In this document: piece by piece, positions 40,343 to 46,715 of the stretch
Layout: every line of letters starts with the position of its first letter
How positions within the stretch are numbered: position 1 is the stretch's first letter
IMG/VR virus record: IMGVR_UViG_3300023202_000247
Span: 124,001-188,000 of that record
Source of the DNA: a virus
DNA length: 64,000 nucleotides
Reading direction: 5' to 3' (one strand)
Notes under the pieces: generated by a model
What the model saw: the letters and a program-made list of their open reading frames with translations, nothing else
Told to the model about the DNA's origin: nothing
Databases searched by the model: none
Translations under genes and position numbers: made by a program

Positions 40343-40718
40343 ATTGATATTCGCTATTGAAGATGATGGAGATATCAGTTTCGAACTAGACATGATAGAA
40401 TCATTCTCTGAGTTGATTTTCACTATTAGAAATCATCACATTTATAAGAGAATGCTATTGTTGATAAACAATCGTTTAGGTGATAGAGAATATGTTTGTT
40501 CTGCTATTTATCGAATGTTATCATATGATTGTCAAGGTTTGAACATACATCCTTGGGATGTATCCGTTACATTTCTATGTATAGTATTGTTTGATTCTCA
40601 CCAAGGGCTTCCGATGGAAGTGTCGAGCGCGGTGCGTGACTGTGACATTACCAAGTGGGCCAGCTTGGCTGTTGATAGTGCCGAGTTAAAAGTGTTGTTG
40701 GAGAGAAAAATAGCATGA
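40326..40718 (+). CDS. Unknown protein
   Basis: 130 residues, overlapping the DnaE start by 4 bases (ATGA). Mostly helical with several Cys and His, no metal-binding pattern (MIESFSELIFTIRNHHIYKR; SYDCQGLNIHPWDVSVTFLC). Its position directly upstream of DnaE suggests co-expression with the polymerase. No family was recognised. Confidence 0.55.
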   Translation: MTKINELIFAIEDDGDISFELDMIESFSELIFTIRNHHIYKRMLLLINNRLGDREYVCSAIYRMLSYDCQGLNIHPWDVSVTFLCIVLFDSHQGLPMEVSSAVRDCDITKWASLAVDSAELKVLLERKIA

Positions 40719-43399
40719 TTAATTTACCTTATGTTAGTTTACACAATCAAACTACTTTTTCTACGATGGATGCATTGGTTAGCGTCCAAGAATTGTGTGA
40801 GCTGGCAAAGAAAATGGGACATGAGGCGGTGGCCATTACCGATCATGGAACCTTAGCATCCATGTGGGATGCCTATAAAATAGGTAAAAAGATGGGAATC
40901 AAAGTGATTCCCGGCTGTGAATTCAACTTCGTCGAGTCTGTCGACAATGATGAACCTTTACGTCACATAATTCTTTTGGCAAAAAATGCCACGGGTTATC
41001 ACAACTTACTGCTTCTCAATAAATTAGGCTTTGATAATAAAGCTATCATGTTCAAGTCTGCAATTCCGAGAATTGATTGGAAGCTTTTAGAAGATCACAG
41101 CGATGGTTTGATTTGTACCACAGCTTGTGGCAACGGAATCATCAGTCAGCTCATCATGCAAAAGAAACATGATGAAGCTAAAGAGTCTTTGAAAAGACTC
41201 AAAGATATATTTGGTGATGACCTAGCTATCGAATTGCAAGCACATGCTCTCGTACGAAAAGAGACGGCTTATTCCGGAGCTATTGATCAAAGGTTCATCA
41301 ACCTAAACCTTAAAAAGCTTTCAGAAGAACTCGGCATTAGAGCAATCGTTACGACGAATACACATTATGCTGATAAAGATGATTATCGTGCTCACGATAC
41401 ACTTCTAGCAATTAGAAGTGGTCAAACTGTATTCTCCGGAAATCGATTGAAATACAATGTCAATGATTTTTATTATAAACATCAGTTGGAGTTAGCATCA
41501 TTCTTTGTTCGTTTGCGTGGGTTGTATCCACAAAGCTTTGTTGAAAGTTTGTTTGAGAATACAGTTTACTTTGCAAACAAGTGCGAAGATCCCGAATGGA
41601 TTGATTTGAAGTATTCCAATCCGACCGGGAAGGAGTTGCCAAAATTTCCAGTCAGAGATGAGCCAAATCTAGATGCATTCGATGCTTGGGCAAAAAACAA
41701 TGCTCCCGGTCTTGATGATGACGTTGCGTACTTGAGGTATCGTTGTGACCTGGGATTGAAAAAGATGATCCCAGAATCAAAACATGATGAATACAAAGCA
41801 CGTTTGAAGGAAGAGTTCGATGTTATCGAATATCACGGCTTTAGCTCTTACATGCTCATTGTTGCCGATTTCATTAATTATGCAAGAAAAAATGGTATTC
41901 GCGTTGGACCCGGAAGGGGATCGGTAGCTGGCTCGCTGATTGCGTATCTATTGGAAATTCACGTAGCAGACCCCATCAAGTATGGTCTCATTTTCGCTCG
42001 TTTTCACAACAAAGAGAAAACATCATTTCCAGATATTGATGTTGACTTTGCTCCATCGGGACGTGACGAGGTACAAAACTATATTAGACAAAAATATGGT
42101 GAGGACTATGTTGCTCATGTTTCCAATGTTAATACTATAACGCCGAAGGTGTATGTAAAAGACATTGCCAGAGCACATGAGTTTGGTGGTGATAGAAAAG
42201 AGGCGGTAAAGATTGGAAATGAAATTGCTGACTTCATGCCTTCAGGCCCGAGCGCTCCCAAAAGCTTGGAAAAGGCCAAAGAGGAGTATGCTTTGTTTGC
42301 AGAGGCAATGGTTCAATTTCCGGAGCTTGCGGAGTTTGCCGATAAAATCGGAGGCAAGCCAAGAGCTTGGTCTACACACGCCGGTGGTTTAATCATTGGT
42401 GCCCGACCATTACCGGGTCTCGTTCCAGTACGTCGAGATGTACACGACTCCACGGCAATCGAGTATGACAAAGACAAGGCTGAAGAAATTGGCTTGGTCA
42501 AGATGGATACTCTCGGGTTGGAAACGCTCGACATCATAACCGATACCTATAAGTTGATTAAAGCAGTGGGTAAGGATGTACCACCAGACCCTCCGAGATT
42601 TGATGAATATGACAAAGAAACTTATGATTTAATATCTTCTGGTGATACCCTTTGTATTTTTCAGTTGAGCGGTATTGCGTCCACACTTTGTCAGTCAATC
42701 AAACCAAATAGCATCGAAGAGATTAGTTATATCAATGCGCTCGTACGTCCAAGTGCAAAAGCAATTGTTAAAGATTTCATTGCAACTCGTGAAGGAAAAA
42801 AGAAAGTAGAATTGCTGGATTCTTCTTTGGAACGTGCCTTTGGTGAAACATATGGGTTCGGACTATATGAAGAGTGTTTGCTTTATTTGGCTCAAGATGT
42901 TGCAGGATGGGATCTTCACTCAGCTGATAGGCTGAGAAAACTTACAAAAGAGAAAGGTAAGAATCCCAAAAAAGTTGCTGGGTGGCGTGAAGAGTTCATC
43001 AATGATGGTAAGAGCCAAGGAATTGATGAACATATTGTTACTAAGATTTGGGATGAAGTTGTAAATGGTTTCCAAGGATATGGGTTTAATAAATCATTAT
43101 ATTCTTTGCAGAAAGTTGATACATTTACTAAGGATGGTCAATTTTTAACATCCAAAGCAATTAAATATATAAGTTCAAATGAATATGTGCGTTCTCGTGA
43201 TGAAAAAACCGGTGTGGACATTTATGTTAGGGTAATTGATAATCATGACCACGGAAAGTTAGAAGTTGTTGATATTGAATTAGAAACTGGAGAAAAGGTT
43301 AGATGTACTATGAATCATAAGTTTAGAACAGTTGAAACCGGTGATATGGTACCTCTTCATCAAATTATTGAGAATGACTATTCTATAGTAGTGAAATGA
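40715..43399 (+). CDS. dnaE-N: DNA polymerase III alpha (DnaE), N-terminal part with N-intein
   Basis: 894 residues: 793 of DnaE extein plus 101 of N-intein. The PHP domain (about 1-280) contains LHNQT and AITDHG; the second His of the usual HxH is replaced by Gln, so metal binding may be altered. The polymerase core has GPGRGSVAGSL, the first two catalytic Asp pairs in PDIDVDF (Asp440, Asp442) and the third, Asp598, in KMDTLGL. The extein stops at GYGFNK, just before the SHS of the normal DnaE motif. The protein needs trans-splicing with 45381-46715 to be complete (1,200 residues). It overlaps the next gene by 4 bases. Confidence 0.92.
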   Translation: MINLPYVSLHNQTTFSTMDALVSVQELCELAKKMGHEAVAITDHGTLASMWDAYKIGKKMGIKVIPGCEFNFVESVDNDEPLRHIILLAKNATGYHNLLLLNKLGFDNKAIMFKSAIPRIDWKLLEDHSDGLICTTACGNGIISQLIMQKKHDEAKESLKRLKDIFGDDLAIELQAHALVRKETAYSGAIDQRFINLNLKKLSEELGIRAIVTTNTHYADKDDYRAHDTLLAIRSGQTVFSGNRLKYNVNDFYYKHQLELASFFVRLRGLYPQSFVESLFENTVYFANKCEDPEWIDLKYSNPTGKELPKFPVRDEPNLDAFDAWAKNNAPGLDDDVAYLRYRCDLGLKKMIPESKHDEYKARLKEEFDVIEYHGFSSYMLIVADFINYARKNGIRVGPGRGSVAGSLIAYLLEIHVADPIKYGLIFARFHNKEKTSFPDIDVDFAPSGRDEVQNYIRQKYGEDYVAHVSNVNTITPKVYVKDIARAHEFGGDRKEAVKIGNEIADFMPSGPSAPKSLEKAKEEYALFAEAMVQFPELAEFADKIGGKPRAWSTHAGGLIIGARPLPGLVPVRRDVHDSTAIEYDKDKAEEIGLVKMDTLGLETLDIITDTYKLIKAVGKDVPPDPPRFDEYDKETYDLISSGDTLCIFQLSGIASTLCQSIKPNSIEEISYINALVRPSAKAIVKDFIATREGKKKVELLDSSLERAFGETYGFGLYEECLLYLAQDVAGWDLHSADRLRKLTKEKGKNPKKVAGWREEFINDGKSQGIDEHIVTKIWDEVVNGFQGYGFNKSLYSLQKVDTFTKDGQFLTSKAIKYISSNEYVRSRDEKTGVDIYVRVIDNHDHGKLEVVDIELETGEKVRCTMNHKFRTVETGDMVPLHQIIENDYSIVVK
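43094..43396 (+). other. N-terminal half of a split intein
   Basis: Intein residues 1-101, beginning with Ser1 (SLYSLQKVDTFTKDG, block A). Block B is GEKVRCTMNHKFRT with the expected TxxH. It ends with a short segment ENDYSIVVK. Ser1 instead of Cys1 is an accepted nucleophile. No endonuclease domain lies inside it. The frame stops right where the homing endonuclease gene starts. Confidence 0.85.
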
Positions 43400-45381
43400 C
43401 TAATGACTTAACGCAAAAATTCTTAAATAAGATCCCTAAACAATATCGTGAAAATATTGTGATCTTATCACCAGAAAAAGGTGGCAATTCAAGAGTAGAA
43501 TATCTGCATCCGATTTGTGGATGCAAAACAACCAGTACATTGAAGACTTTTGTTAAGCGAAAGTCTTTTGACAGTTGCTTAAAATGTTCCAATCAAAAAA
43601 ACTTTAACTACTATAAGAGTAAAATTGCTTTTCCGAATAATATAGATTTACTGGAGCCATTTCACGGTGGAGCAACAAAAGTTAGTTTCAAACACAATAT
43701 ATGTGAGTGTATAATAAACACAACATTGTCTAGACTGACCAACAGAGATCAGCTTGATTATTGTAAGAAATGCTATCAAGCATATTATTATGATTCAGCA
43801 TCAAATCTTGACAATGTAAAAATAATTGGTAAAAATAAAGGTTATAATTCTGACGCTGAGTATACATGCTCAAAATGTAGTAAAATATTTTATACGAAAC
43901 TTTCAAATCTTATTAACAGAAAAGATATTAGCAAGTGCCATGAATGCTCTAAACAAGAAACTTTAGATAGTTACTTGACGTTACTTTCTAAAGACATATT
44001 GAATAGAATAAAAGTTTTAAATCATAATGGCAGTTATTCTAGAATTAAATATGATAATCCATGCGGACATCAAACAGAATCAACTATATCTGATTTTGTG
44101 AAGCGCGAACAATTTGACTATTGTCAACATTGTTCTCAAAAAAAGAGTGTTACTGATTACATTGATTTGATTGATAAAAAGTATCATCAAAATATAGAAA
44201 TTGTTAAAGATTTGGGAGCAAAGTCTCCAATTATTTATACGTGCCCATCTTGTGGAAACAAAAGAAGATTAACTGTCAAATCACTACAACGTTTTGACGA
44301 TTGCTTGAATTGTAATAACAGTTGTCGTATTTCAAAGCAAGAAATGATTGATAATCTCAAGCCGTTTTTGAACAACATAAAAATCGTTGATGGTTTTCCA
44401 GGGCATAGAACCAGTGTTGTAACCGGTAACTGCGTTGCTTGTAATTCCAAGGTTGAAAACTATTACTTTAATTTTTCAAGATACTATACTTATTATAACG
44501 AACCAAGATGCAGTAGTTGCAGCCCAAAGAGCATAGAGCAAAAAATGCTGGCCAATTTTGTTGGGTCGTTAACAGATTTCATAGAAAATGATAAGTCAAT
44601 AATCAAATCATCAGAAACAGATCGTAACCTAGAAATCGATATTTATTGTCCTAAGGAAAAGTTTGCTATTGAATATAATGGTTTGCTTTGGCATTCCGAA
44701 AAATATGGAAAAGATAAGAATTATCATTTCTATAAAACAAGACAGTGTCAAGAGCATGGTATATATTTGTTACATATATGGTCAGATAAATATAAGAAAC
44801 ATCCAGAAATATATCACTCTATAATAAGATACTGTTTGGGTAAAATAAAGAATAGAATATTTGCAAGACGCTGTATTTTGAAAGAATTGGACAAGAATAT
44901 CTCAAGAGATTTTTTTACAACAAATCATCTTGATGGCAATGTCGGTTGTCTAAAAGCATGGGGTTTGTTTCATGATGAAAAGTTGATTCAAGCTATCTCG
45001 GTAAGGCGTGTGAGTAAGCAAAACAGTAAATACGCTTCTTATTTAGAAATTGCAAGAATGGCAACTCTTTTAAACCATTCAGTGGTTGGAGGCGAATCAA
45101 AACTGTTGAGCTTTGTTGAAAAGTTTGCTCGTGATAATGAATATGCTGGTATCTTGAATTATGTAAGTGCTGATTTTGGAAAGCCTCAACAAAATAAATA
45201 TCATTTTGAGTACAAAGGTATTACTGATGTTTCGTATTGTTATACGGATGGTAATAAAAGAATTTCTCGACAACGCCTTCAAAACAGACCTAAAGGTGTT
45301 AGTGAGCGCGCTCATGCCAATAGTTTGAATCTCTGGCGCGTTAATCTAACACCAAACTTCATTTATATATTGAATTTCTAA
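43396..45381 (+). CDS. Homing endonuclease, Vsr-like (EDxHD type) with zinc-ribbon repeats
   Basis: 661 residues lying exactly between the two dnaE halves and overlapping both by start/stop junctions (ATGA at 43396, TAATG at 45379-45383). Residues 1-375 hold about six repeats of 60-70 residues, each with two Cys pairs (for example CGC...CLKC, CEC...CKKC, CSKC...CHEC, CGH...CQHC, CPSC...CLNC, CVAC...CSSC), likely zinc ribbons that read DNA. Residues about 377-482 are Vsr-like: Glu381, Asp415 in EIDIY, Glu426/His433 in IEYNGLLWHSE, Asp464 in IWSD. A C-terminal region with SVVGGESKLLSFVEKFARD and QQNKYHFEYKG recurs in phage homing nucleases. Role: spreading itself and the flanking intein. Confidence 0.88.
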   Translation: MTNDLTQKFLNKIPKQYRENIVILSPEKGGNSRVEYLHPICGCKTTSTLKTFVKRKSFDSCLKCSNQKNFNYYKSKIAFPNNIDLLEPFHGGATKVSFKHNICECIINTTLSRLTNRDQLDYCKKCYQAYYYDSASNLDNVKIIGKNKGYNSDAEYTCSKCSKIFYTKLSNLINRKDISKCHECSKQETLDSYLTLLSKDILNRIKVLNHNGSYSRIKYDNPCGHQTESTISDFVKREQFDYCQHCSQKKSVTDYIDLIDKKYHQNIEIVKDLGAKSPIIYTCPSCGNKRRLTVKSLQRFDDCLNCNNSCRISKQEMIDNLKPFLNNIKIVDGFPGHRTSVVTGNCVACNSKVENYYFNFSRYYTYYNEPRCSSCSPKSIEQKMLANFVGSLTDFIENDKSIIKSSETDRNLEIDIYCPKEKFAIEYNGLLWHSEKYGKDKNYHFYKTRQCQEHGIYLLHIWSDKYKKHPEIYHSIIRYCLGKIKNRIFARRCILKELDKNISRDFFTTNHLDGNVGCLKAWGLFHDEKLIQAISVRRVSKQNSKYASYLEIARMATLLNHSVVGGESKLLSFVEKFARDNEYAGILNYVSADFGKPQQNKYHFEYKGITDVSYCYTDGNKRISRQRLQNRPKGVSERAHANSLNLWRVNLTPNFIYILNF

Positions 45382-45491
45382 TGTCAAAAATAAAATCACT
45401 AAAACCGGTTGGTAAATTGCAAACATATGATCTGGAAGTTGACCATCCAGATCATCAGTATTATTTATCAAACGGAGTTTTAACTAGCAAC
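45381..45491 (+). other. C-terminal half of a split intein
   Basis: Thirty-seven residues. Block F is VGKLQTYDLEVDHPDHQYYL, and block G is SNGVLTSN followed by Ser+1 (45492). Asn37 would cyclise at the junction; the penultimate residue is Ser rather than the usual His. Confidence 0.85.
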
Positions 45492-46715
45492 AGCCACTCT
45501 ACACTTTACTCTATGATATCATTTCATACTGCATATCTAAAAGCTCATTTTCCTTTAGAGTTTTTGGTTGCAAACTTGAAGAGTGAGACAAAAAAGACAT
45601 CAAACCCCAAGGCCAAGGACAATGTCTTAAAAATAAAGGACGAGATTCGTAGTCTTGGAATAAAGTTGATTGCTCCCAACGTAAACAACAGCTTGAGGGT
45701 TTACAAAATTATCACCGACAAAACGTTGATGACGGGACTCAACAGCATCAAGTATGTTAGCGATGATGCGATTGAAGATATTGTAGCTAAAAGACCATTT
45801 AAGAGCTATAGTGATTTTATTGCCAGAACAGATAGTCGCAAAGTAAGAGCCAACTCCATTCAAGCCCTTGCAGCATCTGGTTGTCTCGATGATTTCGGAT
45901 TACCACGTAAGTTGATGTTTCTTTACGCATCGGATTTTAGAAAGAAACAAAGCTCGGCTTTGAGAGCAGCCAAAAAGGCTGGTAATGATGAGTTGGTGAA
46001 GCAGATTACCGAAGATTTCGAATATCCATGGCCAGAGGATTCTGAATGGTCGGTGCAAGAACTTTTTGCCTTGGAAGAGTATTTCATGGGGGAGGGTTTG
46101 AGCGGCACGGTACAAGAACGCTATGTCGGTTTCTTCGATTCTAGCTCTATTGATTATAGACTTTTGCCCAAGATGTTTCCATATCGTCTTCTTGACGAAG
46201 ATGATAAAGTTAACAGAAAAAAGAATACACACCCAATACCAAATAGTAAAGTTCCATATTTGAAAGGAATTATAAAAAGACTATTTTCTTTTAAGGTTAA
46301 GAAAGATGATTCGCCAATTCGCGGTCAAGAAATGGCAATTATTACCATACAAGATCCATATGGAACGGATATGACTTGTATAGCGTTTCCTGATACATGG
46401 GTGCATATACAGAAGCGCATCTATGAGGATTTGTCTGGACGCTCTGCAAAACTAGATGTTGGTCTTGCTGTTGCCATGACCGGTTCGTTTCAGCACGAAA
46501 ATGAACATGTTCATTCATTCATCATTGATGATATATTGGATATACAGGAGTCTCCGGCTCTTCCAAAGGATAGAGATTCTAAAAGTATCAAACTGCCTCG
46601 TAAGAAAAAGGTTAAAGAGGACCCCGAGAAATTGGAAAAAGAAGAACTAGCTGAAATCATGGAAGATGATATGATTCAAGAGGGTTTTGTGTTTGATGAG
46701 CCGGAACCATTATAA
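45381..46715 (+). CDS. dnaE-C: DNA polymerase III alpha (DnaE), C-terminal part with C-intein
   Basis: 444 residues: 37 of C-intein and 407 of C-extein. The extein begins SHSTLYSMISFHTAYLKAHF, which continues the DnaE motif broken at the end of dnaE-N. It goes on through the tandem HhH region, then an OB-fold (EMAIITIQDPYGTDMTCIAF ... AMTGSF), and ends in an acidic/basic tail without an obvious clamp-binding QxxL/F motif. Trans-splicing with dnaE-N would give a 1,200-residue alpha subunit. No in-frame fusion with dnaE-N exists. Confidence 0.92.
   Translation: MSKIKSLKPVGKLQTYDLEVDHPDHQYYLSNGVLTSNSHSTLYSMISFHTAYLKAHFPLEFLVANLKSETKKTSNPKAKDNVLKIKDEIRSLGIKLIAPNVNNSLRVYKIITDKTLMTGLNSIKYVSDDAIEDIVAKRPFKSYSDFIARTDSRKVRANSIQALAASGCLDDFGLPRKLMFLYASDFRKKQSSALRAAKKAGNDELVKQITEDFEYPWPEDSEWSVQELFALEEYFMGEGLSGTVQERYVGFFDSSSIDYRLLPKMFPYRLLDEDDKVNRKKNTHPIPNSKVPYLKGIIKRLFSFKVKKDDSPIRGQEMAIITIQDPYGTDMTCIAFPDTWVHIQKRIYEDLSGRSAKLDVGLAVAMTGSFQHENEHVHSFIIDDILDIQESPALPKDRDSKSIKLPRKKKVKEDPEKLEKEELAEIMEDDMIQEGFVFDEPEPL

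What the first reader, a model, noticed from the sequence alone, without database searches (positions are those of the whole stretch)
40715..46715. Fractured DnaE: split intein with a homing endonuclease gene between the two halves
DnaE is encoded as two proteins. The first ends with an N-intein (Ser1 at 43094, block A, block B with TxxH). The second begins with a C-intein (blocks F and G, SN junction, Ser+1 at 45492). A complete homing endonuclease gene fills the gap and overlaps the flanking genes at both ends (ATGA 43396, TAATG 45379). Spliced product would be 793 + 407 = 1,200 residues. The same arrangement was described as 'fractured genes' with Vsr-like nucleases (Dassa et al. 2009). This example in a phage replicative DnaE may be new.
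Basis: partly seen in the sequence, partly recalled or inferred. Interest (0 to 1): 0.9.

Follow-up and report, generated by a model that had tools for sequence, protein, structure and literature searches.

The report
Phage DnaE split by homing intein
In a very large bacterial virus, the gene for its main DNA-copying enzyme is broken in two by a selfish DNA-cutting gene, and the two protein pieces carry matching halves of a self-splicing tag that should join them again; about 45 related loci show the same break at different stages, so the history of such splits can be traced.

Summary
I found the same intein at the same dnaE site (FNK|S...TSN|SH) in 45 other loci, and uninterrupted dnaE in 21 close relatives.

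(2) In 25 relatives a different HEG starts inside the N-intein gene in another, open frame (25 of 25; about 1.5 expected). In the window that frame is full of stops and another HEG (zinc repeats + EDxHD nuclease + Mom/GNAT-like domain) fills the slot. (3) The intein's closest solved relatives, by sequence and predicted fold, are cyanobacterial DnaE split inteins, inserted 4 residues away.

Splicing and cleavage are inferred, not shown. The kind is known (Dassa 2009, read only through citing papers); I found no report of it in phage DnaE.

The parts
40715..43093 (+). N-extein: DnaE residues 1-793 (PHP, polymerase and finger domains)
43094..43399 (+). N-intein, 101 aa plus stop; Ser1 at 43094
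43304..43324 (+). Intein block B CTMNHKF (TxxH); in relatives the majority HEG starts over this Cys codon
43396..43399 (+). ATGA overlap of N-intein stop and HEG start
43396..45381 (+). Homing endonuclease gene, 661 aa
43396..44529 (+). HEG part: about six CapR-like zinc repeats of ~60 aa
44530..44805 (+). HEG part: EDxHD/Vsr-like nuclease core (E413, D415, E426, H433)
44848..45270 (+). HEG part: Mom/GNAT-like domain (approximate limits)
45379..45383 (+). TAATG overlap of HEG stop and C-half start
45381..45491 (+). C-intein, 37 aa, ends TSN
45423..45491 (+). Intein blocks F and G
45492..46715 (+). C-extein: DnaE residues 794-1200, Ser+1 at 45492

Best explanation
This is a fractured dnaE. A split intein with a homing endonuclease gene between its halves sits at the conserved FNK|SH site of a jumbo-phage replicative polymerase. 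The three genes have overlapping, probably coupled start and stop signals. The N- and C-intein fragments associate, fold into one intein domain and join Lys793 to Ser794 (Ser1 acyl shift, Ser+1 transesterification, Asn cyclisation without a penultimate His), giving a 1,200-residue DnaE. The endonuclease is expected to cut intein-free dnaE of co-infecting phages at the empty site, so that repair copies the whole unit (N-intein, HEG, C-intein). The HEG in this slot can be lost, replaced or recombined while the split intein stays, because the polymerase depends on it. Shown here by sequence: anatomy, intein-free alleles, recurrence, incongruent trees, HEG turnover, constraint on the ORFs. Inferred: splicing, target site, cleavage, homing.
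For: Precisely placed intein halves and intact HEG. Same intein at the same residue in 46 loci including the window, 44 split and 2 contiguous. Uninterrupted alleles in 21 close relatives that align straight across the junction. AlphaFold model of a contiguous family member, pLDDT 92, best PDB match the Npu DnaE intein. GC of the whole insert differs from both exteins. A 15-locus clade has support 100/100 in the DnaE tree, but holding it together in the intein tree is rejected (AU p = 0.015), consistent with horizontal movement. The HEG family profile hits the EDxHD enzyme 3r3p. Third-codon-position bias shows purifying selection on both HEG types. No Rfam intron in the region.
Against: No splicing or cleavage was measured. 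Block A is atypical and the penultimate His is missing (the Ssp DnaE intein also lacks it, PMC4031507 reference list). The nearest intact homologue of the window HEG in a dnaE slot, L136, is only 43% identical and its 3' end lies on another contig, so activity at this site is unproven. Records are metagenomic assemblies.
Confidence: 0.87

Rival explanations
1. Two-subunit polymerase: the halves work together without splicing, and the intein remnants are decayed.
For: Two separate ORFs; block A atypical; penultimate His absent.
Against: All key splicing residues are conserved across 46 loci that differ widely elsewhere; the C-intein is 57-81% identical to the window's in 29 relatives while adjacent extein is often 30-40%; two relatives keep the intein in one continuous frame. 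A decayed remnant would not be conserved so.
Confidence: 0.06
2. The HEG does not home to this site. It is a free-standing phage endonuclease that settled in a gap left by an earlier HEG, and the split intein is now immobile.
For: The window HEG belongs to a very common free-standing phage family (522 relatives); the majority HEG of this slot is a different type and its nested frame is closed in the window.
Against: Two more loci, L136/L091 and L130, have the same HEG type in exactly the same slot; the insert has uniform base composition; HEG ORF intact.
Confidence: 0.25
3. Intervening sequence removed at RNA level (group I or II intron) or continuous frame by frameshifting.
For: Large phage genes are often interrupted by introns with HEGs (PMC12350094, PMC3984707).
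Against: No Rfam match at E <= 1; both flanks encode intein domains in frame with the exteins.
Confidence: 0.02

Closest known systems
Fractured genes (Dassa et al. 2009, doi 10.1093/nar/gkp095; not held here, known through citing papers)
   Same: Conserved enzyme gene interrupted by a split intein, with a free-standing EDxHD/Vsr-type endonuclease gene between the intein halves; mainly phages
   Different: Extein is a phage DnaE. The published list could not be read; a citing paper names nrdA and nrdJ (PMC3653736). The HEG here has CapR-like repeats and a Mom/GNAT-like domain, and in relatives the usual HEG starts inside the N-intein gene
Cyanobacterial split DnaE inteins (Ssp/Npu DnaE)
   Same: Same extein family and split position; closest solved inteins by sequence and by predicted fold; no penultimate His; NCBIfam models of split DnaE halves (PRK09532, PRK07373) extend over both window inteins
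   Different: Insertion 4 residues downstream (FNK|S, against Y|CFNKS in cyanobacteria, from general knowledge); Ser1/Ser+1 instead of Cys/Cys; halves adjacent with a HEG between; phage genome
Split PolB intein of jumbo phage MIJ3 (PMC6892783)
   Same: Jumbo phage, replicative polymerase, split intein, endonuclease gene in the gap
   Different: Family B polymerase, different intein (block G LVHN|S), HNH endonuclease
CapR-like/EDxHD HEGs of phage group II introns (PMC12350094)
   Same: Several ~60-aa CapR-like domains followed by an EDxHD/Vsr-like nuclease
   Different: Here in a split intein; about six repeats, plus a C-terminal Mom/GNAT-like domain
Contiguous DnaE mini-inteins of Rhodococcus phages NiceHouse, Grayson, Francesca (L002, L004, L005)
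   Same: Same dnaE insertion site FNK|S
   Different: Single ORF, Cys1, THN ending, no HEG

Membership tests
Fractured gene (split intein + HEG in gap) | Conserved extein gene split into two ORFs carrying N- and C-intein at the break | tested here: met
Fractured gene (split intein + HEG in gap) | Free-standing endonuclease gene between the intein halves | tested here: met
   ORF 43396-45381, PHROG homing endonuclease
Fractured gene (split intein + HEG in gap) | Uninterrupted alleles of the gene in relatives | tested here: met
   21 close intein-free relatives
Fractured gene (split intein + HEG in gap) | Halves trans-splice | not testable with these tools
   needs expression; residues consistent
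Intein (class 1) | Nucleophiles and blocks A, B, F, G | tested here: met
   Ser1, TxxH, F:4 Asp, F:13 His, Asn, Ser+1 present; block A weak; G:6 His absent (nomenclature PMC4031507)
Intein (class 1) | Hint fold | tested here: met
   model of the contiguous homologue L012, pLDDT 92, best PDB hit NpuDnaE intein; window halves 46% and 65% identical to it. The window pair itself could not be folded as one chain
Cyanobacterial DnaE split intein allele | Insertion at Y|CFNKSH of DnaE | tested here: not met
   window site is FNK|SH, 4 residues downstream; the cyanobacterial site is from general knowledge
EDxHD/Vsr homing endonucleases | EDxHD nuclease core | tested here: met
   E413, D415, E426, H433 invariant in 35; profile hit 3r3p E 4e-5
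EDxHD/Vsr homing endonucleases | Site-specific DNA cleavage and homing | not testable with these tools
   biochemical assay needed

The most novel reading that the evidence does not exclude
Phage dnaE fractured by this mobile unit is the kind of source from which the cyanobacterial split DnaE inteins arose: a homing endonuclease gene broke a contiguous DnaE intein, was later lost, and other genes then separated the two dnaE halves. The states seen in present-day relatives (contiguous; split with nested HEG; split with empty gap; split with unrelated genes between; re-fused with the C-half start Met still inside) are snapshots of the steps.
Probability: 0.2. Interest if true: 0.85.

Novelty: new variant of a known kind. 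Interest (0 to 1): 0.63.

Why it matters
Split DnaE inteins are the workhorses of protein ligation, and how a contiguous intein becomes split is unsettled. This phage family puts the intermediates side by side in one gene at one site, with the endonuclease present, replaced, lost or crowded out by other genes. It also offers dozens of new natural split-intein pairs, many with Ser1 and Ser+1 as nucleophiles, close to Npu DnaE but inserted at a different site. The nested reading frame (HEG starting inside the intein's catalytic block B) suggests one way in which endonuclease and splicing domain become tied together.

Tried and rejected
Intron explanation: Rfam at E <= 1 found nothing. A second, continuous dnaE in the same record: none. 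Chance ORFs: rejected by profile hits. Close relatives of the HEG: a scan with the HEG alone found none; an alignment-based scan gave 522 relatives of the nuclease-Mom part and the key homologue L136. Correlation between the extein -1 residue (K/R with intein, M/V without) and intein presence looked striking, but only 1-2 informative independent pairs remain, so nothing is claimed. MAFFT put separate C-intein rows onto the N-intein, so they were left out for folding. Foldseek on the HEG model found only the GNAT-like part; the nuclease assignment rests on sequence profiles. Dassa et al. 2009 is not held, so its list of exteins could not be checked.

Full report
Observation. DnaE-N plus N-intein is 40715-43399, HEG 43396-45381, C-intein plus DnaE-C 45381-46715. 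Removing 101 + 37 intein residues leaves 793 + 407 = 1,200 DnaE residues. The window is positions 124001-188000 of a 321,461-base IMG/VR virus record. dnaE and the HEG were found once each in that record.

Identity of the parts. The N half carries PHP, polymerase and finger domains, the C half an HHH domain. The intein fragments match TIGR01445, PF14890 (below its cut-off) and TIGR01443. Their best solved relatives are DnaE inteins: phmmer 4e-7 for the N-intein; with a family profile 4e-11 for 7qil and 4e-10 for Npu, then Ssp at 9e-6, with gp41-1 next at 1e-4. A contiguous family member, L012, was folded from an alignment that includes the window N-intein (pLDDT 92, pTM 0.84); its best PDB matches are the NpuDnaE intein chains of 4kl5. 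Residues present: Ser1, Thr B:7, His B:10, Asp F:4, His F:13, Asn G:7, Ser+1 (numbering after PMC4031507). His G:6 is Ser; PMC4031507 cites a structure of the Ssp DnaE intein that also lacks it.

The HEG. The 661-aa protein has about six ~60-aa C-x2-C repeats with a weak CapR match, a nuclease domain whose E413, D415, E426, G429 and H433 are invariant in 35 homologues, and a C-terminal Mom/GNAT-like domain. The family profile hits 3r3p 'Mobile intron protein' (E 4e-5), from general knowledge the EDxHD enzyme I-Bth0305I. The repeat-plus-EDxHD design matches the HEGs described in phage group II introns (PMC12350094).

Relatives. Scans of IMG/VR with the halves and with intein alignments, one of GTDB contigs and inspection of L136 gave 46 distinct loci (window included) with both intein halves, all in DnaE at FN[K/R/Q...]|S...TSN|SH. 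States: 25 split with the majority HEG (zinc-finger, partly ROS/MUCR-like, N-terminus and a Vsr-like nuclease, 320-470 aa; truncated in L013); L100 and L124 split with an HEG outside the nested arrangement; 3 chimeric HEGs (L016, L041, L060) with one window-type repeat joined to the majority nuclease; 3 window-type (the window; L136, whose C half is probably L091 on a second contig of the same metagenome; L130, a Thioploca MAG contig where the HEG is internally deleted); 9 split with no intact HEG; 2 (L072, L073) with 3.5-4.6 kb of unrelated genes between the halves; 2 contiguous (L012, L118). L118 keeps the C-half start Met inside the joined frame, which suggests re-fusion. Twenty-one close relatives have an uninterrupted dnaE, 56-59% identical over the N-extein (L042, a partial contig, 65%), that aligns straight across the junction.

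A nested gene. In all 25 majority-type loci the reading frame +2 to the intein is open from the Cys codon of block B to the end of the N-intein, with ATG or GTG over that codon in 24. Shuffling synonymous codons predicts about 1.5 of 25 open. In the 18 other split loci tested, 3 are open. The loci were grouped partly by seeing an overlapping ORF, so the fair comparison is majority-type HEG present (25 of 26 open, counting L100) against absent (3 of 17); it stays very strong. In the window this frame has stops near intein codons 74, 76, 79, 82, 91 and 93, and the HEG starts instead at the ATGA. The simplest reading is that the window lineage lost the nested HEG and received a different one.

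Mobility. The DnaE tree has a 15-locus clade with support 100/100. Holding the same loci together in the intein tree is rejected (AU p = 0.015), so the intein has probably moved between lineages; 138 columns are few, so details of the intein tree are weak. The insert differs from both exteins in base composition (0.31-0.32 against 0.39-0.41). Majority-type HEG pairs have dN/dS of about 0.13-0.19, window against L136 about 0.34 near saturation, with third codon positions changing most.

Mechanism. Shown by sequence: anatomy, conservation, intein-free alleles, HEG turnover, tree incongruence. Inferred: trans-splicing of DnaE, cleavage of the empty site, copying of the unit by repair. Conserved motifs such as FNKSH suit a homing site, because the recipient cannot easily change them (general knowledge of homing endonucleases).

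Novelty. Fractured genes with EDxHD/Vsr HEGs were described by Dassa et al. 2009 (not held; cited as such in PMC12350094). A jumbo-phage split PolB with an endonuclease gene in the gap is known (PMC6892783). I found no report of a fractured phage DnaE in searches of the held library, which lacks most subscription papers. The relation to cyanobacterial DnaE inteins is suggestive, not proven: the sites differ by four residues and no tree with cyanobacterial inteins was made.

Noticed in passing
G000:C1:102628-103299 (L049): Contiguous intein in a AAA+ ATPase-like protein, inserted in the P-loop (GPMG|C...HN|CGKS), with an HNH-like insert
   Followed up: partly
G000:C1:310694-311851 (L218): Large contiguous intein, LAGLIDADG-like, in a ribonucleotide reductase that looks like class II NrdJ (GQ|C...HN|SGRRG)
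   Followed up: partly
L009, L013, L041 (N-extein near window DnaE residue 400): A second, contiguous intein at the motif GPxRG|S of the same DnaE: mini-inteins in L009 and L013, a much larger one, LAGLIDADG-like, in L041
   Followed up: partly
L018-L043 compared with intein-bearing loci: Residue before the junction is Met or Val in 19 of 21 close intein-free relatives but mostly Lys or Arg in intein-bearing ones; possible escape from homing or a splicing preference, but not statistically independent
   Followed up: partly
L072:7240-10731, L073:7243-11868: dnaE halves separated by several unrelated genes (pilus-assembly-like proteins; in L073 also a TnpB-like protein and a DNA methyltransferase)
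   Followed up: partly
L064, L070, L110: N-inteins that start with Thr instead of Ser or Cys
   Followed up: no
window:44848-45270: The HEG and many Hef-like relatives carry a C-terminal Mom/GNAT-like domain; Mom of phage Mu modifies DNA, so a nuclease fused to such a fold is worth a look
   Followed up: partly
window:38227-39480: Phage-encoded trigger factor-like chaperone (TIGR00115, 168.7 bits, just under its cut-off)
   Followed up: no
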